From positions 121,928 to 185,927 of IMG/VR virus record IMGVR_UViG_3300030104_006883: a stretch of DNA of 64,000 bases. One strand, written 5' to 3'. The DNA comes from a virus. Within the stretch, counting starts at the first letter, position 1. Each line of letters starts with the position of its first letter. A model generated the notes under the pieces. That model had not been told where the DNA came from, did not search any database, and was given only the letters and a program-made list of their open reading frames with translations. Position numbers and translations under genes: made by a program. This document shows, piece after piece, positions 8,314 to 64,000 of the stretch.

Positions 8314-8321
8314 CTATTTAC
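8314..8321 (+). promoter_or_regulatory. CTATTTAC motif
   Basis: Recurring CTATTTA element 17 bp before ATG 8339. The ribosome site AGGAG starts only 5 nt downstream of it, which is tight for a normal -10 box. Confidence 0.4.
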
Positions 8322-8338
8322 TTAGAAGGAGCTTTGTA

Positions 8339-8659: not shown

Positions 8660-8670
8660 GAGGCTAGCTC

Positions 8671-10668: not shown

Positions 10669-10678
10669 GGGACAACAA

Positions 10679-11530: not shown

Positions 11531-11543
11531 GGTGTGTTAAAAA

Positions 11544-11882: not shown

Positions 11883-11883
11883 C

Positions 11884-51817: not shown

Positions 51818-51827
51818 GGAGGTCGCA

Positions 51828-52133
51828 ATGAGCAAGAGGGGGGATGAAAGAAGAAAAAAGCTCATTCAAGAAGCAGAGGGCAAGATAGACCAAATAAAAA
51901 ATGGCCACGCTTTTCATGTGGATAAAGAAGTTATCAGAGTTTTAAAGCTGTTGATACTTGAATTGAAAACTGCAAATATGGAAAGCTCTTCCTTCAAAAA
52001 ATTATTGGTAGAGAGCAGGTTGACCGCCGCTAAAAATAAAAATAAGATTGAAGTTCTAGATTATGAAAATAAAAAACTTTTAAAAGAATTAGAGGCGATG
52101 AGGACCATTGAAAGAAGAAATAAAAAAAGGTGA
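51828..52133 (+). CDS. Unknown coiled-coil protein
   Basis: 101 residues after AAGGAGG. Basic start (SKRGDERRKKL), a helical middle and a C-terminal coiled coil. Overlaps the next gene. Confidence 0.6.
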   Translation: MSKRGDERRKKLIQEAEGKIDQIKNGHAFHVDKEVIRVLKLLILELKTANMESSSFKKLLVESRLTAAKNKNKIEVLDYENKKLLKELEAMRTIERRNKKR

Positions 52134-52344
52134 CTTAGTTCTTTGGAGGAGTGACGATCAGTTCGACCTAGTTGCAGGTCCGCCTCGCGACAACGCAGAA
52201 CAACTGGGTATCGTAGTCGAGACTAGAATGCTAGAGAATGCCAAGGGAGAGCTTGCAATAAGAGGAGTCTTGGTGAGATGGCCGGAATATGACACTGACT
52301 TTTGGACTCCAGTTGAGATGTTACAGGTTATAAGTGAATCATGA
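52108..52344 (+). CDS. GDLV-family small protein (52.1 kb)
   Basis: 78 residues from TTG 52108 after GAGGA. EIKKGDLVLWRSDD, then LGIVVETR and GVLVRWPEYD: the shared pattern of a GDLV start, a hydrophobic strand with G-I-V-x, and a W/V-containing strand, as in an SH3-like barrel. Confidence 0.6.
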   Translation: MKEEIKKGDLVLWRSDDQFDLVAGPPRDNAEQLGIVVETRMLENAKGELAIRGVLVRWPEYDTDFWTPVEMLQVISES

Positions 52345-52399
52345 TAAAGTGGAACAAACGTTTTCGTGCTACTAATTAAGTTTCATGGAGGCGTAGCAG

Positions 52400-52576
52400 A
52401 TGCATTTCACAGCAATAGAAATAGAGAAATATGAGAGAGGAGACTTGTCTTTTGAAAAGACAGTGGACTTGTTCCAAAGGATAGTCGATTCTGGGATGTT
52501 GTGGAGATTTGACAACGGGATACACGTTGACATCAACAAGCTAATTGACAGAGGCTATGTTTTAGCTAGATATTGA
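52400..52576 (+). CDS. Short conserved phage protein (58 aa)
   Basis: ATG 52400 after GGAGG, 58 residues. YERGDLSFEKTVDLFQRIVD followed by SGMLWRFDNG and LIDRGYV matches a short family seen in many phages (pattern Y-x-x-G-x-L-x-x-x-x-x-x-x-L-F-Q). Function unknown. Confidence 0.75.
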   Translation: MHFTAIEIEKYERGDLSFEKTVDLFQRIVDSGMLWRFDNGIHVDINKLIDRGYVLARY

Positions 52577-52591
52577 AAATTGTTTTTTGGT

Positions 52592-52599
52592 CTATTTAT
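52592..52599 (+). promoter_or_regulatory. CTATTTAT motif
   Basis: Recurring CTATTTA element 6 bp before the start at 52606. Confidence 0.35.
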
Positions 52600-52605
52600 T
52601 TATAG

Positions 52606-52830
52606 ATGAACCTTTATTATATTTATCAAGACGAAAATACTGGTGAAGGCACCTATCATGCTGCTGTTGTCGCCGCTGAAACCAAAGAAGAGGCTCGCTC
52701 AATTCATCCGGCTGGGAACTGGGACAGGGTGGACATGTGGTGTTATTCGGAGGAAGAGGTAGGTGTAAGGCTAATAGGCAAGGCAGCAAAGCCGGTCGCA
52801 AGCGGTGTCGTTTTGGCAAGCAATTCTTAA
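52606..52830 (+). CDS. Small conserved phage protein
   Basis: 74 residues. YHAAVVAAETKEEARSIHP, W and VRLIGKA are the pattern of a small alpha-beta protein common in phages. Function unknown. No clear ribosome site; the CTATTTA motif is just upstream. Confidence 0.65.
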   Translation: MNLYYIYQDENTGEGTYHAAVVAAETKEEARSIHPAGNWDRVDMWCYSEEEVGVRLIGKAAKPVASGVVLASNS

Positions 52831-52854
52831 TTTGGAATAATGGTATATTTTTTA

Positions 52855-52862
52855 CTATTTAA
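52855..52862 (+). promoter_or_regulatory. CTATTTAA motif
   Basis: Recurring CTATTTA element in the gap after 52830. Confidence 0.35.
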
Positions 52863-52984
52863 AATAAATTGGTTTCCTTGCGCTTTTGAAAATGCAAGTG
52901 GTACGATGGGAAGGCGGACCCCCATCATTTTTTTACAAACCCTATTGTGGGGCTATTATTCGACGTGTAGTCAAAGGGGAATAC

Positions 52985-53152
52985 ATGGTAAAGGTTTATG
53001 AACCTAACAAGTCTGAGAAGGCTATTGATGTTATATTAACTGAATTGTATCTTTTACGAAGTGCAATTGAGAATGAAAAAAAAGATAAGTTAGAGGCGCG
53101 TATAAAAAAAATTCGTGCAATGCTGATTAAAATAAAAGATGACCTTGACTAG
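52985..53152 (+). CDS. Small helical protein
   Basis: 55 residues from ATG 52985 after AAAGGGGA; the frame continues upstream to ATG 52892, with no ribosome site there. Helical and basic (KIRAMLIKIKDDL). Not recognised. Confidence 0.45.
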   Translation: MVKVYEPNKSEKAIDVILTELYLLRSAIENEKKDKLEARIKKIRAMLIKIKDDLD

Positions 53153-53192
53153 TCAATAACAAGATTAAATGTCCCTGCATGGTATTTACTAC

Positions 53193-53720
53193 ATGGGGAA
53201 GAAATATAAATGTTCTTATTGTTTAGAGAAGGGCCACAATGTAAGAGGATGTGCCTCGTACAAGAATGACATAATTATAGCGGCCAGCAGAACGTTGGAG
53301 TTGAGAAAAGAACTTGTGGTGGCATGCGAAAGACAAGGGTTTGGTGTCGGGTGCATAGTTTCAGTGAACATGCGCTTGTGGGACAACAATTTGCATGAAT
53401 ATATAAACGTTGATACCATCGGAACTGTTGAGGAGATATATTGGAAATATCTCTTCTGGAAAAACCTTTCCGGAGATCGAAGTATAAACGGTGCGGTAAA
53501 GATTTCTTTCACGCATCCGAGCGCTGACGCGAGAGTTTATGTGACAACGGCCCTGCCCCCCAGCATCCAGAAAGAGATGAGGATTGACAGCACATTTGCT
53601 AAAAGGTCCATATTGAAAATAGTAGGCAAGTCAGACCATTTGTCGCTACCGGAATCTTTTTTAGACTTTGAGGAGATCAAGAAAGAAGTAGAAAGAAGAC
53701 ACAGGTTCAACGTGGAATAA
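53193..53720 (+). CDS. CCHC zinc-knuckle protein 1
   Basis: 175 residues from ATG 53193 (ATG 53169 is possible). A retroviral-type zinc knuckle CSYCLEKGHNVRGC (C-x2-C-x4-H-x4-C) starts at residue 7. After a helix, FGVGCIVSVNMRLWDN and IGTVEEIYW resemble the GDLV/SH3-like proteins nearby. Paralogous to the genes at 62.1 and 62.9 kb. Likely nucleic-acid binding. Confidence 0.75.
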   Translation: MGKKYKCSYCLEKGHNVRGCASYKNDIIIAASRTLELRKELVVACERQGFGVGCIVSVNMRLWDNNLHEYINVDTIGTVEEIYWKYLFWKNLSGDRSINGAVKISFTHPSADARVYVTTALPPSIQKEMRIDSTFAKRSILKIVGKSDHLSLPESFLDFEEIKKEVERRHRFNVE

Positions 53721-53725
53721 TTTTC

Positions 53726-53753
53726 TTGATTTTTCCAAAAAAGGAATTATTAT
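53726..53753 (+). promoter_or_regulatory. Sigma70-type promoter
   Basis: TTGATT, 16-bp spacer, TATTAT (53748-53753); the gene at 53772 follows 18 bp later with ribosome site AGGAGG. Confidence 0.6.
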
Positions 53754-53771
53754 TGTTACAGGAGGAAACGT

Positions 53772-54017
53772 ATGTTTGATTTTGTAGACGATCCGTTTTC
53801 GGATTCTGTTGATCACGGTTCATTTAAAAATTTATATTTGGAAGATTATGAGCACATGCTAGAGAAGGCTGAAGCGGCTAATGAAATCGCTGCGGAGTAT
53901 CGCATGGCAGGACACCATCTCGCTGCCGAGGAGCAAACAAAAAAGGCCGTTGCCTTTAGAAATTGTGCCGAAAGTATTTTGGCGGTTGCTGCCACCATAC
54001 CTATGGCTGACGCGTAA
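53772..54017 (+). CDS. Unknown helical protein
   Basis: 81 residues, acidic start (FDFVDDPFSDSVD), then helices with EAANEIAAEYRMAGHHLAAE, like a TPR-type hairpin. Not recognised. Stop overlaps the next ATG. Confidence 0.65.
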   Translation: MFDFVDDPFSDSVDHGSFKNLYLEDYEHMLEKAEAANEIAAEYRMAGHHLAAEEQTKKAVAFRNCAESILAVAATIPMADA

Positions 54018-54217
54018 TGATAAAGAAGGGTTCTTTAGTTAGGGTATCCTATTATTATCACGAGCATGTTACTCTAGGAATCGTTGTAGGTGACACGACC
54101 GAGGACTATTCAACTAGTGAGCCTCGCTGCCTTGTCCACTGGTTCTACAATGGAGAAACTAAAGAAATGTTAGAGAAGTACGTCGCTGTTGTTTCGGAGC
54201 CACCAGATGATAATTAA
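54017..54217 (+). CDS. KGSLV-family small protein
   Basis: 66 residues. IKKGSLVRVSYYYHEH, VTLGIVVGD and CLVHWFYNG: the family pattern (K-x-G-S/D-L-V, G-I-V, V-x-W). Start overlaps the previous stop (TAATG). Confidence 0.65.
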   Translation: MIKKGSLVRVSYYYHEHVTLGIVVGDTTEDYSTSEPRCLVHWFYNGETKEMLEKYVAVVSEPPDDN

Positions 54218-54413
54218 GCACTTTCATGAACACGAATTGCTGAGCGCCTACAAAGCAGGCTCTAGTTCCGATAAAAAATATTATCAAAAATTAAAAAAGA
54301 AAAGACGACAAGAAAAGCTTGATCTTGGACCCGCTGCGATTATAAACATAGCAGGCCAAAAAAAAGAGGAACTGTTTATCTACGACAGGTTTGGCAAGAA
54401 GAAAAAGTTTTAG
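54207..54413 (+). CDS. Unknown basic protein
   Basis: 68 residues from ATG 54207 after CGGAG. Lys-rich (KKYYQKLKKKRRQEK) with a beta C-terminus. Not recognised. Confidence 0.55.
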   Translation: MIIKHFHEHELLSAYKAGSSSDKKYYQKLKKKRRQEKLDLGPAAIINIAGQKKEELFIYDRFGKKKKF

Positions 54414-54424
54414 GAGACTTGATT

Positions 54425-54937
54425 ATGAATATCTTTGCGATTGAGAAAGATAACAGCGGACAGATTGATTGGATAAAATCGGCAGAATCTCAGGACAACT
54501 ACAGAGTTGTTAAAATGATTTTGGAATCTTGTCAGATACTATCAACTGTTCTTAATGAGCAGGGAGTGCAAGCACCATATAAATCATTTAATCCTAAGCA
54601 TCCATCTTGTCTCTGGGCTGCGGAGTCTAGCGACAACTTTGAGAATCTAGTGATGCACTGTTACGCTTTGATTGGGGAATATTCGGAGCGCTTTGGTAAA
54701 GATCATAAGTGCATTAGCGTATTGGAGAAGATTGTTTTACTCTATGACCCGAGCAGGTTCCCGACTCAAGATGCGACACCGCTCAAGATGGCGATGCCGG
54801 ATGAATTTAAGAGCGATGATATTGTCGAATCGTATAGAAAATATTATGCGAGCAAGACGAGAATGAGGTACCCATCTGATAAAGTGCCCAAGTGGTTTAT
54901 TACTTATCGCGGCAATGAACCATTTGTTGTAGTTTAA
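54425..54937 (+). CDS. Pyrimidine-dimer glycosylase-like (Pyr_excise family)
   Basis: 170 residues from ATG 54425 after GGAG. MNIFAIEKD, VVKMILESCQILSTVLN, FNPKHPSCLWAAESSDNF and the EYSERFGKDHK segment match a phage family annotated as pyrimidine dimer DNA glycosylase. Many members lack proof of activity. A role in UV-damage repair is plausible. Confidence 0.65.
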   Translation: MNIFAIEKDNSGQIDWIKSAESQDNYRVVKMILESCQILSTVLNEQGVQAPYKSFNPKHPSCLWAAESSDNFENLVMHCYALIGEYSERFGKDHKCISVLEKIVLLYDPSRFPTQDATPLKMAMPDEFKSDDIVESYRKYYASKTRMRYPSDKVPKWFITYRGNEPFVVV

Positions 54938-54939
54938 GC

Positions 54940-54967
54940 TTTACTAAATTATAAAAGGTGTTATAAT
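54940..54967 (+). promoter_or_regulatory. Sigma70-type promoter, leaderless geometry
   Basis: TTTACT, 16-bp spacer, TATAAT (54962-54967); 6 nt then ATG 54974. Transcription would start at about the A of the ATG. Confidence 0.75.
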
Positions 54968-54973
54968 ATAGGT

Positions 54974-55264
54974 ATGACTGGATCACTTATAAGCTACAGA
55001 TGCGGAGGAAGTTTCTCCATGGGGGTGGTGATTGACTCATTTATCTTGGACATACCTGGATATAAGGGGTTGATGGCTGACGGGGACACTATAATTTCTG
55101 TTGGTTGGCTTACCGACAAGAGCGAAAAGAATCGTCGCCCAAAGCCGCTTTACCTGATGCAGATGGGGGACAGAAATAAGCTTGAGGAAGCACGAAATAG
55201 GATGAACAGAAATCGTAAGTTTTGGTACAACCTAAAGTGGTTTAACATGGAAAATATTGTGTAA
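54974..55264 (+). CDS. GSLI-type protein, probably leaderless
   Basis: 96 residues. TGSLISYRCGGSFSMGVVID resembles the GSLV/GDLV pattern; the C-terminus is helical and basic with Trp. No ribosome site between the -10 and the ATG. Confidence 0.65.
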   Translation: MTGSLISYRCGGSFSMGVVIDSFILDIPGYKGLMADGDTIISVGWLTDKSEKNRRPKPLYLMQMGDRNKLEEARNRMNRNRKFWYNLKWFNMENIV

Positions 55265-55285
55265 AAGGAGTCGGCGCTATGCCTA

Positions 55286-55642
55286 GTGTATTACGAAGCT
55301 CGTGAAAGAGCATTGAGCAACGGAAGAGTTTATCATCTGGTCGCGATACTGAAGCGCGGAAGAAAAGTTGTTAAGATTGGTGAAAATACGTGCAAAACTC
55401 ATCCAAGGTTCAAAAGAACATATCCTGATGGAACCACCGGCAGTCACATGCACGCGGAAATGAATGTCCTCCGCTTTGCCAAACCAGGGGACACCATCGA
55501 AGTCATGAGATTTTTAAAGACCGGAGGGATGGCGATGGCCAAGCCCTGTGAGCACTGTATGAAGCACATTCGACGGGCCGGTATAAAAAAAGTTCGTTAT
55601 ACGAACGAAGAGGGCGATTGGGAAACTATGAGGATTGAATAG
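55286..55642 (+). CDS. Cytidine/deoxycytidylate deaminase-like protein
   Basis: 118 residues. Zinc motifs HAE (56-58) and PCEHC (87-91) with the spacing of dCMP/CDA deaminases, then RRAGIKKVRYTNEEG. It may turn dCMP to dUMP for ThyX. GTG 55286 is far (16 nt) from the AAGGAG site, which better fits ATG 55279, an 8-codon out-of-frame ORF. Confidence 0.78.
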   Translation: MYYEARERALSNGRVYHLVAILKRGRKVVKIGENTCKTHPRFKRTYPDGTTGSHMHAEMNVLRFAKPGDTIEVMRFLKTGGMAMAKPCEHCMKHIRRAGIKKVRYTNEEGDWETMRIE

Positions 55643-55725
55643 TGCTTATTCATGATAGAAAAACTTATGAAGAGTTTAGAGATGTGATTATAAACTTATT
55701 GACTTTATTCCGGAGGAGGTTTTAG
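55642..55725 (+). CDS. Possible micro-protein (27 aa)
   Basis: GTG 55642 overlaps the deaminase stop; 27 residues, ending LLTLFRRRF. Its end contains the ribosome site of the next gene. Low support. Confidence 0.25.
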   Translation: MLIHDRKTYEEFRDVIINLLTLFRRRF

Positions 55726-55728
55726 GCC

Positions 55729-55947
55729 GTGAAAACTAAAAGACCCGAAAAGGGAGATTTAATAATTACTCGCAAGGGGGAATTTGGTATTCTCGTAGAA
55801 AGGGACCAGCACCAAGGTTCTTACTTCTGGAGAGTTGCTTTTACTGGAAAACAGCCCTGGAATTATGGGCATGAGTATGGGTGGCTAGAGACAAACATCC
55901 TAAACCGTGCTTATGGCAAACTTTGGAGGGCAAATGCTGGAGTCTGA
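55729..55947 (+). CDS. KGDLI-family small protein
   Basis: 72 residues from GTG 55729 after GGAGGAGG. RPEKGDLIITRKGEF, GILVERDQH and FWRVAFTG show the family pattern. Confidence 0.65.
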   Translation: MKTKRPEKGDLIITRKGEFGILVERDQHQGSYFWRVAFTGKQPWNYGHEYGWLETNILNRAYGKLWRANAGV

Positions 55948-56119
55948 GATGGCGCTCAAGGCACCTTATTTTGAGCTATGGATGCTGCTAGAGCTTTGTC
56001 ATGTTATGACATTTTCTCTTATATTCTCTATAGTTGCAAATTATTTTATTTCTTCTCTTGACTCAAGAAAAGTCCGTGATTATAATCGAGCAAAGGAGAA
56101 GAGCGGTGAAAAAAGGTGA
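55934..56119 (+). CDS. Small membrane protein
   Basis: 61 residues from ATG 55934 after GGAGGG. A long hydrophobic segment (LLELCHVMTFSLIFSIVANY) then a basic tail. Overlaps both neighbours. Confidence 0.55.
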   Translation: MLESEMALKAPYFELWMLLELCHVMTFSLIFSIVANYFISSLDSRKVRDYNRAKEKSGEKR

Positions 56120-56300
56120 TTTGATTTTATTTTGCGATCCTACGGGATCTTCGCCACCGGAGCCTGGTATCGTGATAGATGTAGACACGGAACCCCTCGA
56201 AGGCGACCCTAACTGCCTCGGATTGGTTTATGTAAATTTTGAAGACGGTGACTTTTGGGTAGACATGGACGATTGTAAAATTTTGAACGAGGAGTGGTAA
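56106..56300 (+). CDS. KKGDL-family small protein
   Basis: 64 residues from GTG 56106 after AAGGAG. MKKGDLILFCDPTGS, PGIVIDVD and VYVNFEDGDFWVD fit the family. Acidic. Confidence 0.68.
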   Translation: MKKGDLILFCDPTGSSPPEPGIVIDVDTEPLEGDPNCLGLVYVNFEDGDFWVDMDDCKILNEEW

Positions 56301-56301
56301 A

Positions 56302-56502
56302 ATTAAGAAAGGAGACTTGGTAGTTTTGTCTGCCTACGCCAGAGGCCTAAAGTGGCTTAGCGGCTCCTACGCAGGAAAAATAGGAGTTGTTGCCGGTATT
56401 GGCGAGTGTTCTTTTAAAAATAACGCCATGGAATACTGGGTAATTTTTACTGATGGCGAGGAAGAAAGATTTCTAAGAAAAGAGCTAAAAATAGCAAAAT
56501 AA
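56302..56502 (+). CDS. KKGDLV-family small protein with probable ATT start
   Basis: The family motif KKGDLVVLSA is encoded upstream of the first ordinary start (TTG 56317). The codon before KKGDLV is ATT at 56302, seven bases after GAGGAG, just where paralogues have ATG or GTG. I therefore place the start at ATT (66 residues). The body has GKIGVVAG and YWVIFTDGEEERF. Confidence 0.6.
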   Translation: MKKGDLVVLSAYARGLKWLSGSYAGKIGVVAGIGECSFKNNAMEYWVIFTDGEEERFLRKELKIAK

Positions 56503-56530
56503 TTTTATTTTTTGAAAAGGGGGTTATAAC

Positions 56531-56800
56531 ATGGGTGTGGTTAAAGAATATTATAATTTGAGAGTCGGGGACATGTTTGAGACAAACTCTGGATTTGGCT
56601 TGATAACCAAGGTAACTTCTAAAAAATATTATTACAAAGTTGTTTCGAGCGAGCAAGCAATCAAAGGAGATTCTTACCCTATCGATAAGGATCGCTTCTG
56701 GGATATTTTTGTGGATGAAGATAAAGAAAAGGTGACAATCCACTATTCTCCTGATATGAAGTACAGAAGAAAAAAACTAATTTATGAAGTGCAAAATTAA
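56531..56800 (+). CDS. VGDMF-family protein
   Basis: 89 residues after AAGGGGG. LRVGDMFETNSGFGLITKV then alternating strands; a divergent family member. Confidence 0.6.
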   Translation: MGVVKEYYNLRVGDMFETNSGFGLITKVTSKKYYYKVVSSEQAIKGDSYPIDKDRFWDIFVDEDKEKVTIHYSPDMKYRRKKLIYEVQN

Positions 56801-57113
56801 AAAATGTAAAAATGAACGTGCCCCTGGGAGGGCTACCTGTTATACGTGCAAGAATTTAATTTATAGGTACGGGATAACCGGCCCGGAGAGATCCCAGATA
56901 TTGAAAGAGCAAAACAACTCTTGTCGTATTTGTAGTAGAAAAATAAAATTTACTGGTAAGAATGACGGCATAGCCTCCCTAGATCACTGCCACAAAACGG
57001 GAAAGGTTAGGGGAGTGCTCTGTGGAAAGTGTAATACTTGGGTTGGGTATTATGAAAACAATAAGATTGATTTAGAGATAGTTAAAAATTATATTGGAGG
57101 TGAAGATGAATAA
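56784..57113 (+). CDS. Endonuclease VII-like HNH nuclease
   Basis: 109 residues. Four N-terminal Cys, then CRICSRKI, LDHCHKTGKVRGVLC and KCNTWVGYY: the recombination endonuclease VII pattern (T4 gp49) with its zinc site and catalytic DH. It could resolve Holliday junctions or be a small mobile HNH nuclease. Confidence 0.85.
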   Translation: MKCKIKKCKNERAPGRATCYTCKNLIYRYGITGPERSQILKEQNNSCRICSRKIKFTGKNDGIASLDHCHKTGKVRGVLCGKCNTWVGYYENNKIDLEIVKNYIGGEDE

Positions 57114-57207
57114 GTTTACTAGCGCCGAGCGTGACGGGGAGTTTATTTTTAAAGTCTTGTCTTGCGGCGGCATTTTGTCTGTAGTTTGTTATCTATTTTT
57201 GATTTGA
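57106..57207 (+). CDS. Small single-helix membrane protein (33 aa)
   Basis: ATG 57106 after GGAGGTG. 33 residues: a charged start (NKFTSAERDGEF), then a hydrophobic end (GGILSVVCYLFLI). Overlaps the nuclease by 8 bp. Confidence 0.5.
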   Translation: MNKFTSAERDGEFIFKVLSCGGILSVVCYLFLI

Positions 57208-57213
57208 TTATGC

Positions 57214-57289
57214 GCGCCCATAGCTCAACCGGAAGAGCAACAGCCTTCTAAGCTGTAGGTTGGAGGTTCGAGTCCTCCTGGGCGTACCA
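57214..57289 (+). tRNA. tRNA-Arg (UCU)
   Basis: Complete cloverleaf with encoded CCA. Anticodon loop CTTCTAA between ACAGC and GCTGT gives UCU for AGA codons. T-loop TTCGAGT. AGA is common in the genes here, so the tRNA fits phage codon use. Confidence 0.95.
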
Positions 57290-57322
57290 TTTTCTTTACT
57301 TTTGAAGAGAGGGGATTATCAT

Positions 57323-57574
<252 letters not shown>

Positions 57575-57595
57575 TACCGATTCGTCTTTCTCCTA

Positions 57596-57603
57596 CTATT
57601 TAT
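57596..57603 (+). promoter_or_regulatory. CTATTTAT motif upstream of a fibre-like gene
   Basis: Recurring CTATTTA element 16 bp before the GTG at 57620. The ribosome site AGGAGGGGG starts two bases after it, which argues against an ordinary -10 box. Confidence 0.4.
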
Positions 57604-57619
57604 AGGAGGGGGATATAAT

Positions 57620-58402: not shown

Positions 58403-58410
58403 ATAAAAGC

Positions 58411-58438
58411 TTTACTTTTTCAAATTAGTGTTTATAGT
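58411..58438 (+). promoter_or_regulatory. Sigma70-type promoter for tRNA-Leu/tRNA-CAU
   Basis: TTTACT, 16-bp spacer, TATAGT, 12 bp before tRNA-Leu. Confidence 0.7.
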
Positions 58439-58450
58439 GTATTCGTAAAT

Positions 58451-58536
58451 GGCCTTGTGGCGGAATTGGTAGACGCAGCAGACTCAAAATCTGCCGTCCT
58501 TTGGGCGTGAGGGTTCGAGTCCCTCCGAGGCCACCA
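58451..58536 (+). tRNA. tRNA-Leu (CAA)
   Basis: 86-nt class II tRNA with long variable arm and encoded CCA. Anticodon loop CTCAAAA between GCAGA and TCTGC gives CAA for UUG. Confidence 0.93.
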
Positions 58537-58541
58537 TATAC

Positions 58542-58618
58542 GGACCTTTAGCTCAGTTGGTTAGAGCCCCCCGCTCATAACGGGGTAGTCCTCGGTTCGA
58601 GTCCGAGAGGGTCCACCA
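58542..58618 (+). tRNA. tRNA with CAU anticodon (Ile2 or elongator Met)
   Basis: Cloverleaf with encoded CCA; anticodon loop CTCATAA. Acceptor GGACCTT has C4-G69 and C5-G68, which are positive determinants for TilS lysidine synthase in tRNA-Ile2 and absent from E. coli tRNA-Met. That favours Ile reading AUA. However, a second AUA reader occurs at 60909. Confidence 0.9.
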
Positions 58619-58627
58619 AAATATAAC

Positions 58628-58655
58628 TTGATATTTTTCTTTAGGGGGTTAAAAT
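58628..58655 (+). promoter_or_regulatory. Sigma70-type promoter, leaderless geometry
   Basis: TTGATA, 16-bp spacer, TAAAAT, 6 nt, then ATG 58662. An AGGGGG lies in the spacer, upstream of the expected mRNA start. Confidence 0.65.
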
Positions 58656-58661
58656 ATTAAC

Positions 58662-58910
58662 ATGGAAAACAAAAAGAAATATCAAGTTGGTGATTTGGTG
58701 ATTTGCAGGTTCCAACCGGGAGCCCAGAATTATGATTCTAGGCACGGGTTTATCCCCATGCATCATACTATTAAAGATGAAATTGGTATTGTTGTGGGCC
58801 ACAGAGAGAGCGGGCTTAAAGGTGGTTCCGCTGACTACCGTGTAAATTTCCCGCAGTTTAGCGGATATGTCCATATTCTCGCGGCGTCTGCGCTGGAGCC
58901 CATGGAATGA
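58662..58910 (+). CDS. VGDLV-family protein
   Basis: 82 residues. KKYQVGDLVICRFQPGA, DEIGIVVGH and DYRVNFPQF. Stop overlaps the next ATG (ATGA). Confidence 0.7.
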   Translation: MENKKKYQVGDLVICRFQPGAQNYDSRHGFIPMHHTIKDEIGIVVGHRESGLKGGSADYRVNFPQFSGYVHILAASALEPME

Positions 58911-59119
58911 AAGTCGGCGATTTGCTTGTTTATTATGATATCAATGGCAAAGAAATCTCTGGGATTGTAGTGAAAGGGTCACATTACAGCGAAACCACTG
59001 AGTCGCAAGCAGTAAGGGCGCTCTGGTCCGATGACGGATTGATAACTGATGAACCCATAGACATCATTCTTAGTGACGATCTAGAGTATAGTTATATTAA
59101 GCTTGTTTCGGAAGCTTAG
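58907..59119 (+). CDS. KVGDLL-family small protein
   Basis: 70 residues. MKVGDLLVYYDINGK, ISGIVVKGS and VRALWSDDG. The ATG overlaps the stop of the previous family member. Confidence 0.72.
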   Translation: MKVGDLLVYYDINGKEISGIVVKGSHYSETTESQAVRALWSDDGLITDEPIDIILSDDLEYSYIKLVSEA

Positions 59120-59183
59120 TGTAGTTAAAAATTTACTCCCTTAGACATGTTATTACTACTTATTCAAAAGCCAAGGAGGCAAA

Positions 59184-59420
59184 ATGACGCGGAAAGATTT
59201 CCAGCTAATCGCTGACGTAGTTGCTACGGTTGATGACATGAACGCTCGTAACGAGTTGGCACTTAACTTTGTAACTAAACTTTATGACACAAATGAAAAA
59301 TTTGATAGTGTTCGTTTTTTGAAAGCGTGCCAGGTTAATATCAAAAACAATCGTAAGAGAGTAGAAAAAAAGGATCGATTTGATGATTCTTATGCAAAAG
59401 AAAGTTTTATAGCGCCGTAA
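59184..59420 (+). CDS. Small conserved phage protein
   Basis: 78 residues after AAGGAGG. DFQLIADVVATV, RNELALNFVTKL and RFLKACQV fit a short phage family of unknown function. A weak TTTACT-N16-TACTAC promoter lies at 59132-59159. Confidence 0.68.
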   Translation: MTRKDFQLIADVVATVDDMNARNELALNFVTKLYDTNEKFDSVRFLKACQVNIKNNRKRVEKKDRFDDSYAKESFIAP

Positions 59421-59433
59421 CGGTTCTTATAAT
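59406..59433 (+). promoter_or_regulatory. Sigma70-type promoter for tRNA-Asn
   Basis: TTTATA, 16-bp spacer, TATAAT, 13 bp before the tRNA; the -35 is inside the preceding gene. Confidence 0.55.
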
Positions 59434-59446
59434 ATAGTCAAGACAA

Positions 59447-59522
59447 TGCACAGTAGCTCAGTTGGTAGAGCAGACGGCTGTTAACCGTCCGGTCACAGGT
59501 TCGAGCCCTGTCTGTGCAGCCA
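59447..59522 (+). tRNA. tRNA-Asn (GUU)
   Basis: Cloverleaf with acceptor TGCACAG/CTGTGCA, anticodon loop CTGTTAA (GUU), T-loop TTCGAGC, discriminator G and encoded CCA. Confidence 0.95.
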
Positions 59523-59539
59523 AACAAAGAGAGGAAACC

Positions 59540-59704
59540 TTGAGAAGCACTAGCATGGCAAAGACTGTTTTAAATGCTCTGGAAGATGCTCAAAGAGATG
59601 AGTATCGGTTTGAAGATTTAGAAGACTTGTCTGTGTTCATAACCCAAAGGGTTGCGGACCATATCAATAGGGCGCTAAAAGAGATGCTGGACATTGACCG
59701 ATGA
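59540..59704 (+). CDS. Small helical protein (54 aa)
   Basis: TTG 59540 after GAGAGGAA, 54 residues (ATG 59555 is possible). Helical, acidic, with LEDLSVFITQRVADHINRAL. Stop overlaps the next ATG (ATGA). Confidence 0.55.
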   Translation: MRSTSMAKTVLNALEDAQRDEYRFEDLEDLSVFITQRVADHINRALKEMLDIDR

Positions 59705-59883
59705 AAGTCGGTAGTTTGGTGAAAACTAGAGGAGTCTGGGGATCTCGCGAGCACGCGATTATAGTCGATATTCATAAACGAATAGGAGGACACCACTCCT
59801 ACGATATTGTTTTTATTAGAGATGGATTTAAAAAGTATAACCTCGAACGATCTGAATTTGAATTAGTTAGTGGAGTAGATTAA
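59701..59883 (+). CDS. KVGSLV-family small protein
   Basis: 60 residues. MKVGSLVKTRGVWG, HAIIVDIHK and YDIVFIRDG. Typical family member with the ATGAAAGTCGGT start. Confidence 0.7.
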   Translation: MKVGSLVKTRGVWGSREHAIIVDIHKRIGGHHSYDIVFIRDGFKKYNLERSEFELVSGVD

Positions 59884-59884
59884 T

Positions 59885-60271
59885 ATGGGATACCGATCAA
59901 ATGTAGTTTTGGCGATGAGTGAACCTATCAAGCCTTATTTTTTAACCTTGATGGCGACGAACCCCAAAGCAAAGAAGTTTATTGAAGAAGCTGATGTGTT
60001 CGCTTCTTCAAAGATTGAAGAGGGCGATTTTGTAGTCGCCTGGAACGGTGTAAAGTGGTATCCATCTTATGATGAGGTGGAGGCTATTATTAATTTTGTC
60101 TTCGACCTGGAGAACCATGACCTTAGTGACTACGGCGCTAAGAATGGAGACATACAGTGGGAGGAGGAATTGTTTAAGTTCATTCGTATTGGTGAGGACC
60201 ATGGCGATGTGGATGTCATTGGTACCGGATTCTGGGATTTAATGCCAGTCACCAAAATTGGTTGGCCTTAA
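59885..60271 (+). CDS. Conserved phage protein of unknown function
   Basis: 128 residues. GYRSNVVLAMSEP at the start, FVVAWNGVKWYPSYDEV and FIRIGEDHGDVDVIG resemble a small family found in several phages. Not a GDLV protein. Confidence 0.65.
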   Translation: MGYRSNVVLAMSEPIKPYFLTLMATNPKAKKFIEEADVFASSKIEEGDFVVAWNGVKWYPSYDEVEAIINFVFDLENHDLSDYGAKNGDIQWEEELFKFIRIGEDHGDVDVIGTGFWDLMPVTKIGWP

Positions 60272-60274
60272 AAT

Positions 60275-60302
60275 TTGACCTATTGCACTTTGTAGTTATA
60301 AT
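60275..60302 (+). promoter_or_regulatory. Sigma70-type promoter, leaderless geometry
   Basis: TTGACC, 16-bp spacer, TATAAT; 6 nt, then ATGATG at 60309. No ribosome site in between. Confidence 0.78.
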
Positions 60303-60308
60303 TGTGAC

Positions 60309-60524
60309 ATGATGAAAGTTGGCGATTTAGTAAAAATGAAGTATGCCATGTGGTGGCGTCTGCGCGGAGAGAGAGCCGCCAGCAGAAAATACACCGAAAA
60401 AGTTGGTGTGGTGACGTCGGCTGACCATAATGCAATTAAAGTGCTTTTGGTTGGCGAAGACCGCGCCAGGGTCGGTTTGAAAGAAGAGTGGGAGATTGTA
60501 AATGAAAGTCGGCGATCTTGTTAG
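60309..60524 (+). CDS. KVGDLV-family protein
   Basis: 71 residues. MKVGDLVKMKYAMWW, VGVVTSAD and IKVLLVGED. The C-terminus EIVNESRRSC is produced by the overlap with the next start. Confidence 0.72.
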   Translation: MMKVGDLVKMKYAMWWRLRGERAASRKYTEKVGVVTSADHNAIKVLLVGEDRARVGLKEEWEIVNESRRSC

Positions 60525-60684
60525 GGTTAAGCGGGACTATCAAAACACAGAGGCCGCAGGAGTGCTGGCGCTAATTGTTAAAAGATCCGGCAACTCAGTC
60601 ATAGTGCAGGCACTAGGCAACCTAGATAAACCTCATTATGAGCATCGATGGTGGTTTAATCCTGAACATCTGGAGGTTATTTGA
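60502..60684 (+). CDS. KVGDLV-family small protein
   Basis: 60 residues. MKVGDLVRVKRDYQ, LALIVKRS and VIVQALGN. Begins 23 bp inside the previous gene. Confidence 0.72.
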   Translation: MKVGDLVRVKRDYQNTEAAGVLALIVKRSGNSVIVQALGNLDKPHYEHRWWFNPEHLEVI

Positions 60685-60839
60685 TGTGGGTTTTTTATTC
60701 AGAGTTATCCGAAGTCGCTTATCAGTCTCCGAGTGATGCGGCAATATTTCTATTTATGTATTGTGCGATGGCAGCGTGTGTTTTGCTCCCCCCTTACATG
60801 GAGACGGTTAGAAACGAAAGTCATCGACCCGACCGATGA
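60684..60839 (+). CDS. Small membrane protein (51 aa) with degenerate junction
   Basis: ATG 60684 shares its A with the previous stop; GGAGG is 11 bases upstream. 51 residues with a hydrophobic middle (AAIFLFMYCAMAACVLL). The end, YMETVRNESHRPDR, resembles the C-terminus created by a family junction, but the embedded start reads ACG. Confidence 0.5.
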   Translation: MWVFYSELSEVAYQSPSDAAIFLFMYCAMAACVLLPPYMETVRNESHRPDR

Positions 60840-60859
60840 ATTGGATGATTATAAAAAGT

Positions 60860-60887
60860 TTTACTTTTGCTGTGTTGTTGTTACAAT
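60860..60887 (+). promoter_or_regulatory. Sigma70-type promoter for tRNA-Ile(UAU)
   Basis: TTTACT, 16-bp spacer, TACAAT, 21 bp before the tRNA. Confidence 0.65.
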
Positions 60888-60908
60888 GCCAATGAAAGCA
60901 AACAGTAT

Positions 60909-60985
60909 GCGCCCGTAGCTCAGTAGGTTAGAGCGCCATTCTTATAAAGTGGTTGTCGTGGGTTCAAGTCCCATCGGGCGCACCA
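60909..60985 (+). tRNA. tRNA-Ile (UAU)
   Basis: Cloverleaf with encoded CCA; acceptor GCGCCCG/CGGGCGC, anticodon loop CTTATAA between CCATT and AGTGG. UAU reads AUA directly, an anticodon uncommon in bacteria. Confidence 0.92.
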
Positions 60986-61007
60986 AATATTTTACTTAGG
61001 AGCCATT

Positions 61008-61190
61008 GTGAATTTTTATGCTTATTCTCCGGGGGACTTACTCTCCCGTGACCGTAACTTGGCACTTGTAGTGGACGGAGGAACCGTGAATACCTTTACA
61101 GTTCAATGGGTCACTGGCTCGAATACGGGCAAACGGATCACTTATCAATACGGTGAGCGGCCCGCATTTAAGATGCTGAACCCATCATGA
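61008..61190 (+). CDS. GDLL-family small protein
   Basis: 60 residues from GTG 61008 after AGGAG. YAYSPGDLLSRDRN, LALVVDGG and FTVQWVTG. Stop overlaps the next ATG (ATGA). Confidence 0.62.
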   Translation: MNFYAYSPGDLLSRDRNLALVVDGGTVNTFTVQWVTGSNTGKRITYQYGERPAFKMLNPS

Positions 61191-61363
61191 AGGTTGGCTC
61201 GCTCGTTTATAATATTTTCGATGAGAGAAAGATTGACCAACGAGAGATTGGTATTATAATGGATGTGAGAACAGTGGTAGGAACCGCAAAGGTTCTTTGG
61301 CCTGGACACTCTCCCTCATGGATTAGAAAAGATAACCTGGAGATGGTAGATGCAGCAGAATGA
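61187..61363 (+). CDS. KVGSLV-family small protein (58 aa)
   Basis: MKVGSLVYNIFDERK, EIGIIMDVR and AKVLWPGHS, ending NLEMVDAAE. A textbook family member, short enough to be missed by a 60-residue cut-off. Confidence 0.72.
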   Translation: MKVGSLVYNIFDERKIDQREIGIIMDVRTVVGTAKVLWPGHSPSWIRKDNLEMVDAAE

Positions 61364-61865
61364 TATTTTAATGAAGAAGTGGTGTTTTGGAATCGGTCGA
61401 GTCCGAAAGACTGTAGAAACAAACAGCGAGGGAGAGGCAGAGATTGTGCGCTCTTTTCCGCGTTACCGCACCATTGTGATGAAGGTGGCGTCCGCTAAGA
61501 AGCTGCCTGATAATAAGTGGGAGGTGGAAGCAGATAAGTACACGTCTCTAACAAAGCCTCCTAAGCGAGTCAAGATTATTCTTGACCAAAAGCAACACAT
61601 GCAGGCCGGAAAGATTTTTAGTTCTTACGAGGTAGCAGGCGAAAAAAAACCCTTCTACCATGTGCAGACATCTCAAGTCGCCGGAGAGGGGATGCCTCCT
61701 GTTGGCAGTCTGGTCACGCTAAATAAGCGACACGCCATTGTTACGGAGACGGGACAAAATTGTCTCACCGTCTGGATGGATAATAAGTTTCATGAGGTGG
61801 TGGTGAAGCCCGGAAGCGTCCGATGGCATAGCGATAAGATTTTAGCTAACGCTGTGAAATCATAA
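61350..61865 (+). CDS. Two-part protein with C-terminal GSLV domain
   Basis: 171 residues. The N-terminal 115 (CFGIGRVRKTVE, RTIVMKVASA, KRVKIILDQKQH) are not recognised. The C-terminal part PPVGSLVTLNKRHAIVT with LTVWMDNKF repeats the family pattern, so this is a fusion of a family domain to another domain. Starts inside the previous gene. Confidence 0.65.
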   Translation: MQQNDILMKKWCFGIGRVRKTVETNSEGEAEIVRSFPRYRTIVMKVASAKKLPDNKWEVEADKYTSLTKPPKRVKIILDQKQHMQAGKIFSSYEVAGEKKPFYHVQTSQVAGEGMPPVGSLVTLNKRHAIVTETGQNCLTVWMDNKFHEVVVKPGSVRWHSDKILANAVKS

Positions 61866-62042
61866 ATGAAGATTGGTGACTTGGTACAAGTTAGGCTTAG
61901 CTCTCGCAGCGCGAACAAGGGTGACATTGGTATTTTTCTTGCTTTTGACCATCCTTTTGGCGAATGGTGCTACGTGCAAAAATGCGACGGGACAAAACTG
62001 AGAGTCCCTTGGGCACATCTTGATGAGCTAAACGATTATTAA
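61866..62042 (+). CDS. KIGDLV-family small protein (58 aa)
   Basis: ATG 61866 starts directly after the previous TAA. MKIGDLVQVRLSSRS, DIGIFLAFD and RVPWAHLDEL. 58 residues. Confidence 0.7.
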   Translation: MKIGDLVQVRLSSRSANKGDIGIFLAFDHPFGEWCYVQKCDGTKLRVPWAHLDELNDY

Positions 62043-62046
62043 AAGT

Positions 62047-62074
62047 TTTACTTTAACGGTACCGCGACTACAAT
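62047..62074 (+). promoter_or_regulatory. Sigma70-type promoter
   Basis: TTTACT, 16-bp spacer, TACAAT (62069-62074); 27 bp before the zinc-knuckle gene, which has ribosome site AGGAGGGG. Confidence 0.65.
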
Positions 62075-62101
62075 GTTGTTGTAATACCCAGGAGGGGAAT
62101 C

Positions 62102-62848
62102 ATGAGTGTTAGGTGTAGCTATTGCTATGAAGTAGGACATAACCGCAGAACGTGCCCTCATCTCAAGAAGGCTTTGAAGAAGGCTGCGGAAGATGGCAAT
62201 CTATACGCGAAGGCCGAACTAAATAAAAAGATTGTTCGGACTTGTGGTTATTGCGCTAGACAAGGACACGATAGGAGGACTTGTAAATATCTCAAGAGAG
62301 ATATAGAGCGCTTGGCGTCTTGTAATCTAGAGATTCGGAAGAGAATCCAAAAAAAGGCTCAAGACCTTAATTTTGGCGTGGGTACTCTTGTCTCTGCTCG
62401 CTTTAGTAGATGGAACGAGGAAGAGCGTGAGTACCAACCCAAGAGCGCGTTTGGAATCATTAAGAAGATTGATTGGGAGACAGTAGACATCCATTCAGAA
62501 TGGGACAGTTCTGGCTCCTCTGCGTGGCCGTCTCCTGTGACTGTTGAATTTTTTGACGTGCCACAAAATCCTGCAAGAAGGTTTGATTTCCCTTTTGAAG
62601 TCAGCTACTTGGGGCCAGAAGAAAGAAAATCATTTCCAGAATGGAGGATGAGGGATGAACTTCTAGTGCATAACGCTGTGGCCGCGCAAGATGAGGGCGA
62701 ATCCTCACTAAATCAACAGTCCTGTCAAGACCTTGCTAAGAAGCTTATTACATACCGAGAATGGAAAGAGAACTACTGTGATAGGACGATTCAACGCACC
62801 CAGCGCTATTTGGGTATCGAGGAAGTTTTGACTTCCCAAGAACAGTGA
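62102..62848 (+). CDS. CCHC zinc-knuckle protein 2 (two knuckles)
   Basis: 248 residues with two C-x2-C-x4-H-x4-C knuckles: Cys5-Cys8-His13-Cys18 (CSYCYEVGHNRRTC) and Cys48-Cys51-His56-Cys61 (CGYCARQGHDRRTC), joined by a helical linker. FGVGTLVSARFSRWN and AFGIIKKIDW at about 91-125 resemble the GDLV domain. Helical C-terminus. RNA or single-stranded DNA binding is likely. Confidence 0.8.
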   Translation: MSVRCSYCYEVGHNRRTCPHLKKALKKAAEDGNLYAKAELNKKIVRTCGYCARQGHDRRTCKYLKRDIERLASCNLEIRKRIQKKAQDLNFGVGTLVSARFSRWNEEEREYQPKSAFGIIKKIDWETVDIHSEWDSSGSSAWPSPVTVEFFDVPQNPARRFDFPFEVSYLGPEERKSFPEWRMRDELLVHNAVAAQDEGESSLNQQSCQDLAKKLITYREWKENYCDRTIQRTQRYLGIEEVLTSQEQ

Positions 62849-62855
62849 TTATAAT
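62828..62855 (+). promoter_or_regulatory. Sigma70-type promoter inside the gene end
   Basis: TTGACT, 16-bp spacer, TATAAT (62850-62855); 6 nt then ATG 62862 (5-codon ORF), with GAGGAGG for the gene at 62876. Confidence 0.7.
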
Positions 62856-62875
62856 CCTCACATGAGGAGGTGGAG

Positions 62876-63199
62876 ATGAAATGTAGCTATTGCCAAAGGC
62901 AAGCGAACCATAACAGGAGAACATGCCCGGTAAAGAAGCGGGATGCTAAAATGTTTGAAGTTCATAGATTCCCGCAGAAGTTTTCTGTGGGGTCGTTGGC
63001 AATCGGCTGTCCCGCACCCCCCCGTTGGGCGGGAGAACGCCCCAGAACCGATTGGACAACAGGGCTACTCTTTCATATTCTGTCAGGCCCTCGCTCAGAT
63101 TACCATTCATGGGGAGGGTTGTATGATGTCATATGTTTGAGCGGAAATCACTCGGGTCAAACAAAGCAGGTTTATGGTGACTTCCTCTCCCCAAAGTAA
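62876..63199 (+). CDS. CCHC-like zinc-knuckle protein 3
   Basis: 107 residues from ATG 62876. CSYCQRQANHNRRTC has one extra residue before the His (C-x2-C-x5-H-x4-C). FSVGSLAIGCPAPPRW follows, a divergent GDLV-like segment. Third paralogue of the family. Confidence 0.7.
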   Translation: MKCSYCQRQANHNRRTCPVKKRDAKMFEVHRFPQKFSVGSLAIGCPAPPRWAGERPRTDWTTGLLFHILSGPRSDYHSWGGLYDVICLSGNHSGQTKQVYGDFLSPK

Positions 63200-63202
63200 A
63201 AC

Positions 63203-63230
63203 TTTACTTTTAAGTTTTCGAGGTTATAAA
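63203..63230 (+). promoter_or_regulatory. Sigma70-type promoter, leaderless geometry
   Basis: TTTACT, 16-bp spacer, TATAAA; 6 nt, then ATG 63237. Confidence 0.75.
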
Positions 63231-63236
63231 CCTAGC

Positions 63237-63410
63237 ATGATAAAAGTCGGTGATTTAGTTAGATGCAAGGTTGTGCGAAGTTCGGAAGACCTTGCGTATG
63301 TTTTAGATGTGCCAAAAGAAGATGGCTCTTGGGTCTATCTAGTGTGGTGTAAAACAGGCTCTAAGACCTCAACTCACACTTCTCTGGTGGAGATGGTAAA
63401 TGCAAGTTAA
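63237..63410 (+). CDS. KVGDLV-family small protein (57 aa)
   Basis: MIKVGDLVRCKVVRSS, AYVLDVPKE and VYLVWCKTG; ends SLVEMVNAS through overlap with the next start. Confidence 0.72.
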   Translation: MIKVGDLVRCKVVRSSEDLAYVLDVPKEDGSWVYLVWCKTGSKTSTHTSLVEMVNAS

Positions 63411-63588
63411 AGTAGCTGATTTGGTGAAGCACTCAGAAATCCCCTCACTAGGTGTTGGCCTTGTGACGAAGAGTCTAGGCGTTCACTGCATGGTGCAGTG
63501 GACATACCCAGCCGGTGGCGACCGCAAGAATCCCGGCCCAACACTGGAAAGAAACAGTATGCTGGAGTTTGTCAATGAAAGTCGGTGA
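63400..63588 (+). CDS. KVADLV-family small protein
   Basis: 62 residues. MQVKVADLVKHSEIP, GVGLVTKS and CMVQWTYPA; ends LEFVNESR through the next overlapping start. Confidence 0.7.
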   Translation: MQVKVADLVKHSEIPSLGVGLVTKSLGVHCMVQWTYPAGGDRKNPGPTLERNSMLEFVNESR

Positions 63589-63748
63589 TCTGGTAAGGCA
63601 TACAAGAAACGGAGAACCATTTGGGGAAATCCTAGTGGTAACGGCGCAGAAACTCAGCGAGACAAAAAATGAGTTTGTCAAACTTTCTGGCGGACGGAAT
63701 TCATGGCTACCAGCGGTATGCATGATAGTTGTCAGTGCGGTAGAATAA
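63575..63748 (+). CDS. KVGDLV-family small protein (57 aa)
   Basis: MKVGDLVRHTRNGEP, FGEILVVTAQ and FVKLSGGRN. Begins 14 bp inside the previous gene, with GGAG nine bases upstream. Confidence 0.72.
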   Translation: MKVGDLVRHTRNGEPFGEILVVTAQKLSETKNEFVKLSGGRNSWLPAVCMIVVSAVE

Positions 63749-63751
63749 ATC

Positions 63752-63779
63752 TTTACTTTCGCTCTTGCGCGACTATAAT
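63752..63779 (+). promoter_or_regulatory. Sigma70-type promoter, leaderless geometry
   Basis: TTTACT, 16-bp spacer, TATAAT; 6 nt (GAGGGC), then ATGATG at 63786. Confidence 0.78.
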
Positions 63780-63785
63780 GAGGGC

Positions 63786-63965
63786 ATGATGAAAGTCGGT
63801 GATTTGGTAAATTTTACAGAGACGAAGTATCTAGGTACTATTATCTGCATTGATGAAAATCGATGTGAGATTCTCGTTCACGGAGACGTTCCTTTTAAAA
63901 ACCCTACTTGGATGAGCATGAAGATGCTCAAAAGAAACGCGGAGGCTATCAATGAAAGTCGGTGA
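63786..63965 (+). CDS. KVGDLV-family small protein (59 aa)
   Basis: MMKVGDLVNFTETKY, LGTIICIDENRC and EILVHGDVP; ends EAINESR through the next start. Confidence 0.72.
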   Translation: MMKVGDLVNFTETKYLGTIICIDENRCEILVHGDVPFKNPTWMSMKMLKRNAEAINESR

Positions 63966-64000
63966 TTTGGTAAGATATAAAAGTGAGACACTAGGTTCCA
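63952..64000 (+). CDS. KVGDLV-family protein, cut by window end
   Basis: MKVGDLVRYKSETLGS and then the window ends. The array therefore continues beyond the window. Confidence 0.65.
   Translation, partial: MKVGDLVRYKSETLGS

What the first reader, a model, noticed from the sequence alone, without database searches (positions are those of the whole stretch)
52108..64000. Expansion of a short KVGDLV/KKGDLV protein family
At least 20 small proteins (about 57-96 residues) at the right end share an N-terminal K-x-G-(D/S)-L-(V/I/L), then a hydrophobic strand with G-(I/V)-(V/I) and a strand with V/W. Members include 52108, 54017, 54974, 55729, 56106, 56302, 58662, 58907, 59701, 60309, 60502, 61008, 61187, 61866, 63237, 63400, 63575, 63786 and 63952; the array leaves the window. 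A domain copy is fused in 61350, and similar segments occur in the zinc-knuckle proteins. The layout suggests an SH3/KOW-like barrel, a fold often used for RNA, ribosome or polymerase contact. Repeated duplication with strong divergence points to an arms race or multi-target host takeover set.
Basis: partly seen in the sequence, partly recalled or inferred. Interest (0 to 1): 0.85.

Follow-up and report, generated by a model that had tools for sequence, protein, structure and literature searches.

The report
Phage array of swappable mini-protein genes
Mostly uncultured, apparently marine phages carry strings of very small barrel-shaped protein genes, joined end to end by one repeated 30-letter DNA link that carries the end of one gene and the start of the next, so that single genes can be dropped, added or swapped like cassettes.

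Summary
The family is real. 54974 and 61008 fail; the 61350 fusion and the zinc-knuckle copies are unproven. The array runs on into the record's start: 31 matches within about 28 kb, none elsewhere in 186 kb. AlphaFold gives SH3/KOW-like five-strand barrels (pLDDT 88-89). It holds the next gene's Shine-Dalgarno and start, the previous gene's last residues (LEV-SESR) and its stop, in an exact 14-nt overlap. There are 535 such junctions in 126 loci; in loci not chosen by the linker, 72 of 141 adjacent pairs have it, against 1 of 97 control pairs. Near-identical units (92-99%) sit beside unrelated neighbours, with identity breaking inside the linker. Two contigs (99.5-100% identical) differ by exactly one cassette. 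dN/dS is about 0.24, so variation comes from cassette turnover, not positive selection on residues. Strong host-type promoters occur only in this region. Most likely: an early, translationally coupled, recombination-shuffled repertoire of adaptor barrels. Their targets are unknown.

The parts
52108..52344 (+). family unit (KKGDLV); standalone
   Evidence: out-of-sample HMM E 1e-9
54017..54217 (+). family unit (KKGSLV); 1-nt overlap with the gene before
   Evidence: out-of-sample HMM E 5e-11
54940..54967 (+). promoter-like TTTACT-N16-TATAAT
   Evidence: HMM E 3.7
55729..55947 (+). family unit (EKGDLI), GTG start
   Evidence: HMM E 1.3e-4
56058..56086 (+). promoter-like TTGACT-N17-TATAAT heading unit 56106
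56106..56300 (+). family unit (KKGDLI), GTG start
   Evidence: HMM E 1.9e-6
56317..56502 (+). family unit, N-terminal motif degenerate
   Evidence: HMM E 1.7e-7
58662..58910 (+). family unit (QVGDLV)
   Evidence: HMM E 1.9e-5; relatives in L082, L083
58907..59119 (+). family unit (KVGDLL); 4-nt overlap with 58662
   Evidence: HMM E 1.1e-6
59701..59883 (+). family unit (KVGSLV)
   Evidence: HMM E 1.8e-9
60275..60302 (+). promoter-like TTGACC-N16-TATAAT, 9 bp before unit 60312
60312..60524 (+). family unit (KVGDLV; tail NESRRSC)
   Evidence: HMM E 1e-11
60502..60684 (+). family unit (KVGDLV); AlphaFold model: five-strand barrel
   Evidence: HMM E 3e-11; AF2 pLDDT 89.3
   Evidence: HMM E 0.6
61187..61363 (+). 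family unit (KVGSLV)
   Evidence: HMM E 1e-10
61350..61865 (+). 171-aa protein with a possible C-terminal copy (PPVGSLV), unproven; overlaps 61187 gene by 14 nt
   Evidence: HMM E 0.5; ORFs
61866..62042 (+). family unit (KIGDLV)
   Evidence: HMM E 2e-8
62102..62848 (+). tandem CCHC zinc-knuckle protein that accompanies arrays; C-terminal link to the family only suggestive
   Evidence: 57 similar ORFs in array loci; hhalign prob 7-12%
63237..63410 (+). family unit (KVGDLV)
   Evidence: HMM E 9e-9
63400..63588 (+). family unit ending LEFVNESR
   Evidence: HMM E 6e-9
63562..63597 (+). dual-coding linker: ..CTGGAGTTTGTCA ATGAAAGTCGGTGATCTGGT; SD, start of 63575 and stop of 63400 in a 14-nt overlap
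   Evidence: sequence; junction statistics
63575..63748 (+). family unit; 89% identical allele at the record's other end
   Evidence: HMM E 1e-6
63752..63779 (+). promoter-like TTTACT-N16-TATAAT heading unit 63789
63789..63965 (+). family unit ending NESR
   Evidence: HMM E 3e-9
63940..63972 (+). dual-coding linker between 63789 and 63952 (14-nt overlap)
   Evidence: sequence
63952..64000 (+). family unit cut by window end; whole copy at L009:437-610

Best explanation
This is an early-region cassette array of a large tailed phage. Each cassette encodes one 55-80-residue SH3/KOW-like barrel. Shown from sequence: cassettes are joined by a dual-coding linker of about 32 bp, in which the last residues of one protein (LEV-[IV]-[SN]ESR-stop), the Shine-Dalgarno and start codon of the next, and the next protein's first residues (MKVGDLV) share the same bases, in an exact 14-nt overlap. 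Shown by comparison of contigs: single cassettes are deleted, inserted and replaced with breakpoints inside this linker. Inferred: post-termination ribosomes reinitiate on the next unit, so any cassette inserted at a linker is translated; the repeated linker is the substrate for homologous recombination (the phage encodes a RecA/UvsX-like recombinase). Also inferred: the proteins are made early from host-type promoters and act as small adaptors binding various host or phage proteins or nucleic acids. The phage would thus keep a quickly replaceable takeover or counter-defence repertoire.
For: Family and fold. Linker: 438 of 915 neighbouring pairs overlap by exactly 14 nt in pattern-selected loci; 72 of 141 adjacent pairs in loci fetched by a flanking gene rather than by the linker, against 1 of 97 pairs of other genes; 535 linkers in 126 loci, SD-like GGAG/GAGG in 83%, cassette period median 175 bp. 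Exchange: units 92-99% identical with unrelated neighbours, DNA identity ending inside the linker; L023 and L026 are 99.5% and 100% identical over 8.4 and 2.6 kb and differ by one cassette flanked by a 20-bp repeat ATGAAAGTCGGTGATTTGGT; L034 and L101 carry a different cassette between 99%-identical flanks; reordered maps. Functional proteins: dN/dS 0.24. Early-type promoters TTKACN-N15-17-TATAAT: 20 on the + strand, all in the array region, none on the minus strand or in the other stretches examined; promoter-like sites enriched 48 vs 23 and 36 vs 12 expected. RecA-family gene in the record.
Against: No experiment. Targets unknown. Not every unit uses the linker: within the window only two family-to-family junctions (63400/63575 and 63789/63952) are exact 14-nt linkers, plus six in the continuation L009. 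All comparisons are metagenome assemblies. The neighbour-conservation deficit relative to other genes is moderate (54% vs 76% at 90-98% identity). Early timing rests on promoter type only.
Confidence: 0.66

Rival explanations
1. Plain tandem duplication and divergence: the linker is conserved only because it is dual-coding and carries translation signals; there is no cassette exchange beyond ordinary gene gain and loss.
For: Linker conservation is largely explained by SD, start, stop and the two reading frames; codon choice outside the overlap is free. Two ends of this record are 90% identical alleles of the same units in the same order.
Against: Near-identical units with unrelated neighbours on both sides, breaks inside the linker, precise one-cassette deletion and replacement.
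Confidence: 0.15
2. Assembly chimeras: repeats of 20-40 bp made assemblers join cassettes wrongly.
For: All data are metagenome contigs and breakpoints lie in repeats; the record itself ends in such a repeat region.
Against: The same orders recur in contigs of different IMG metagenome ids (L136, L137, L138 and L103/L048; L023 and L026 over 14 units), and cassettes are swapped at 85% genome divergence too (L137 vs L139). The repeats are shorter than common final assembly k-mers (general knowledge).
Confidence: 0.08
3. A site-specific, integron-like system in which a dedicated recombinase acts on the linker.
For: One repeated junction sequence, single-cassette precision.
Against: No tyrosine-recombinase match in the whole record; linker conservation stops where coding and translation needs stop; a RecA-like gene offers a simpler route.
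Confidence: 0.07
4. The barrels are structural or DNA-packaging accessory proteins, not takeover adaptors.
For: Small SH3-like barrels are used in many virion parts (general knowledge).
Against: They lie in a region with dense host-type promoters away from the tail genes and beside ThyX/PurA-like, AAA/VWA and sigma-factor genes; paralogue number and turnover are unusual for virion parts.
Confidence: 0.08

Closest known systems
PeSL-mediated modular shuffling in T4-type phages (Arbiol 2010, Comeau 2014; cited in PMC4503421, originals not held)
   Same: Short repeated motif between small early genes; shuffling of hypervariable small genes; early-type promoters present here too
   Different: PeSL is a promoter plus stem-loop motif; here the shared motif is coding in two frames, lies inside genes, has no promoter or terminator (terminator-like sites 11 vs 9.5 expected), and the cassettes are members of one protein family
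Integron gene-cassette arrays
   Same: Array of single-gene cassettes with a common junction, gained, lost and reordered one at a time
   Different: No integrase found; junction is dual-coding and gives translational coupling; attC-type folding not tested
Start-associated sequences of cluster K mycobacteriophages (PMC3203893)
   Same: Short repeat at many gene starts with a proposed role in translation initiation
   Different: Upstream 13-bp motif 5'-GGGATAGGAGCCC at genes of many families; no dual coding described, no demonstrated cassette exchange
Gene overlaps with termination-reinitiation (PMC10666635)
   Same: Overlapping stop and start with SD, expected coupling
   Different: Typical overlaps are 4 or 1 nt and longer ones are rare; here 14 nt is the main mode
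KOW/SH3-like domains (NusG, Spt5) and phage T4 early protein MotB (PMC7827196)
   Same: Predicted fold; MotB is an early phage protein with a predicted KOW domain that binds DNA
   Different: No significant sequence match to KOW families; here free-standing single barrels in multi-copy arrays
Segmental amplification of anti-defence genes by UvsX-dependent recombination in T6 (PMC13096335)
   Same: Recombination changes copy number of small adaptive segments
   Different: There identical tandem copies arise under selection; here diverged paralogues are exchanged through built-in linkers

Membership tests
KVGDLV phage family (this report) | Match beyond the N-terminal motif | tested here: met
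   12 window ORFs at E<1e-2 with the first 8 residues removed from an out-of-sample model
SH3-like barrel fold | Five-strand small barrel | tested here: met
   AF2 pLDDT 88.3 and 89.3; Foldseek prob about 1.00, TM about 0.6-0.77 to KOW, PWWP and SH3-like domains, E 0.01-0.2; prediction, not a solved structure
KOW (PF00467) | Score above the curated cut-off | tested here: not met
   consensus 11.8 bits against a cut-off of 22.3
Integron | Tyrosine integrase (PF00589) | tested here: not met
   no match in the record
Integron | attC-type folded recombination site | not tested
   linker not folded or compared with attC
PeSL cassettes | Promoter plus stem-loop between genes at the shuffled junction | tested here: not met
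   linker holds neither; promoters occur before first units of runs and single genes; terminators not enriched
Translationally coupled gene chain | Overlapping stop/start with SD | tested here: met
   14-nt overlap, SD-like in 83-91% of linkers
Translationally coupled gene chain | Downstream translation depends on upstream translation | not testable with these tools
   needs reporters or ribosome profiling
Arms-race family under positive selection | dN/dS above 1 | tested here: not met
   pooled 0.24, median 0.21 per cluster; averaged over whole bodies, so single fast sites are not excluded

The most novel reading that the evidence does not exclude
A previously undescribed kind of phage cassette platform: a dual-coding linker makes single-domain genes interchangeable by homologous recombination while keeping every inserted gene translated. 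It would let oceanic phages trade small adaptor proteins one at a time, working like an integron without an integrase.
Probability: 0.5. Interest if true: 0.86.

Novelty: new variant of a known kind. Interest (0 to 1): 0.72.

Why it matters
It gives a concrete molecular reason for the turnover of small early genes in large uncultured phages: the joint itself is a recombination substrate that cannot break translation. It turns hundreds of unannotated 'hypothetical proteins' into one family with a predicted fold, makes cassette exchange testable in a laboratory phage, and yields a catalogue of natural mini-barrels likely to hit bacterial targets. The linker could also be used to build exchangeable coupled gene chains.

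Tried and rejected
The 31-row alignment was too diverse for a collection scan, so I used the linker pattern and two flanking genes; the latter give samples not selected for the linker. Pfam and PHROG searches gave nothing above cut-off. tblastn of a typical unit and of the consensus found no match, and blastn of the linker only chance-level partial matches, among 50,697 phage records, so no cultured representative is known to me. Idea that units are under diversifying selection: rejected by dN/dS. Idea that the linker is conserved as a DNA site beyond coding: not supported, because codons after the overlap vary freely and the C of GTC keeps the C-terminal Arg (CGG) of the previous protein. Idea that zinc-knuckle proteins carry a family domain: only 7-12% profile-profile probability. 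The 90% identical record ends (window 63513-64000 vs L009 1-485) are best read as two population alleles closing a circle: joining the ends directly would fuse ORFs; a real tandem duplication is not excluded. No paper describing this array was found in ten searches of the open library, which does not hold most subscription papers.
Full report
OBSERVATION. The window is bases 121928-185927 of a 185,927-bp virus record. I aligned 31 candidates, built a profile, and extended it with ORFs of viral loci fetched by a DNA pattern. A model trained only on members from other loci finds 16 window ORFs at E<1e-3 and nothing else in the six frames of the 64 kb below E 0.1. With the first eight residues removed 12 still score below E 1e-2. 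Reversed and shuffled sets give no hit at E<1e-2. 54974 and 61008 are not members by this test, and the 61350 and zinc-knuckle copies are unproven. In the whole record all 31 matches lie in 174047-185917 and 1-15984; those at the record's start overlap the window's end as 90% identical copies with identical flanks, so the distinct number is about 26-28.

FOLD. AlphaFold2 with 29 and 47 family rows gave five-strand small barrels at pLDDT 88.3 (a typical linker unit from L038) and 89.3 (window 60502). Foldseek finds KOW domains of Spt5/NusG, PWWP and other SH3-like barrels at probability about 1.00 but E 0.01-0.2. The fold class is therefore well supported and the specific function is not. Viral matches are uncharacterised small phage proteins. 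Pfam KOW is far below cut-off.

THE LINKER. Reading the junctions shows that proteins ending in NESR or SESR do so because AAT GAA AGT CGG TGA is the other frame of A ATG AAA GTC GGT GAT, the MKVGD start of the next gene. Over all loci the consensus is TGGAGGTnATCA[A/G]TGAAAGTCGGTGATTTGGT; GGAGGT sits at Shine-Dalgarno distance and encodes the LEV before the tail. Exactly 14 nt of overlap occurs in 438 of 915 neighbouring pairs in the pattern-selected loci. In loci fetched by a flanking AAA-ATPase gene, so not selected for the linker, 23 of 25 carry members; 72 of 141 adjacent pairs have the 14-nt overlap, against 1 of 97 pairs of other genes there. Published surveys find 4- and 1-nt overlaps by far the commonest and, in the genome counts given, overlaps longer than 8 nt rare (PMC10666635). 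In this genome the runs are 63400=63575, 63789=63952, and in L009 274=437=600=751 and 972=1180=1337=1491.

EXCHANGE. Units 92-99% identical in different contigs often have unrelated neighbours. Aligned DNA shows near-identity across the unit that collapses to chance within the linker on either side. In an automatic scan no right-hand break lies beyond +29 and no left-hand break lies upstream of -13 relative to the start codon; the other breaks fall inside units where the copies themselves diverge. The cleanest cases: L023 and L026 match at 99.5% over 8,388 bp and 100% over 2,609 bp and differ by one cassette of 176 bp flanked by the 20-bp repeat ATGAAAGTCGGTGATTTGGT; L034 and L101 have 99%-identical flanks around two unrelated cassettes of equal length. 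L137 and L139, about 85% identical, differ by several single-cassette replacements in the same place. Against other genes in the same loci, the next unit is conserved less often (14/26 vs 303/401 at 90-98% identity; 8/23 vs 212/436 at 80-90%).

SELECTION AND EXPRESSION. Bodies without the linker ends show dN/dS 0.24 pooled over 107 clusters; the two record-end alleles show pN/pS of about 0.14 and 0.33. So the units are working proteins under constraint, and diversity arises by cassette turnover. Near-consensus promoters TTKACN-N15-17-TATAAT number 20, all on the + strand in window 51.8-64 kb and L009 0-9.1 kb, none elsewhere in the window or in L009 9.1-16 kb. Several stand just before the first unit of a run or before single units (60275, 63752; L009 237, 925, 7342, 7828). 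This suggests expression by host RNA polymerase early in infection; it is an inference.

MECHANISM. Most likely one transcript per run is translated by coupled reinitiation, and the linkers serve as homology for the phage's RecA-like recombinase (match at window about 19519-20325). No tyrosine integrase was found. An endonuclease VII gene lies in the array region (window 56784-57113). The proteins probably act as small binding adaptors in takeover or counter-defence; this last step is the weakest, about 0.4.

COMPARISON AND NOVELTY. It works like PeSL shuffling or an integron array but fails their defining features where tested. The fold is known; the dual-coding exchange linker at this scale is, as far as the held library shows, not described. 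I file it as a new variant of a known kind (modular phage gene exchange). Habitat: the contigs carry IMG metagenome numbers that I recognise from memory as largely marine; this was not checked. No match was found among the deposited phage records. Four bacterial MAG contigs also hold 4-10 members each, probably mis-binned or integrated phage DNA.

Noticed in passing
window 62102-62848, 53169-53720, 62870-63199; L137, L103, L205-L209 and others: A protein with two CCHC zinc knuckles (C-x2-C-x4-GHN-x4-C) and a GxGxLV C-terminal region recurs about once per array locus (57 ORFs with at least one knuckle); the libraries give it no name above cut-off. Possible RNA-binding partner of the array.
   Followed up: partly
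window 51800-64000 and L009 1-9100: Twenty near-perfect TTKACN-N15-17-TATAAT promoters on one strand, none in the other stretches examined: a sharply bounded early-type region.
   Followed up: yes
window 63513-64000 and L009 1-485: Record ends overlap at 90% identity with identical flanks of about 76 and 68 bp: probably a circularly closed genome with two population alleles, or a tandem duplication.
   Followed up: partly
window 57214-60985: Six tRNA genes (Arg, Pro, Leu, Met, Asn, Ile) scattered among the array units.
   Followed up: no
window 56784-57113: Recombination endonuclease VII-like gene (PF02945) inside the array.
   Followed up: partly
window 43544-45115, 50098-50793, 50828-51817, 55286-55642: Phage-encoded GroEL-like chaperonin, ThyX-like and PurA-like proteins (by eye, not tested) and a deoxycytidylate-type deaminase.
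   Followed up: no
L009 2121-4575: MoxR-like AAA ATPase followed by a metallopeptidase/VWA (DUF2201) protein, next to the array in many relatives; distant relatives in N4-like and large Vibrio phages.
   Followed up: partly
L133 (CP070664.1, WOR-3 MAG chromosome): Four family members and one linker in a record labelled as a bacterial chromosome; integrated or mis-assembled phage DNA.
   Followed up: no
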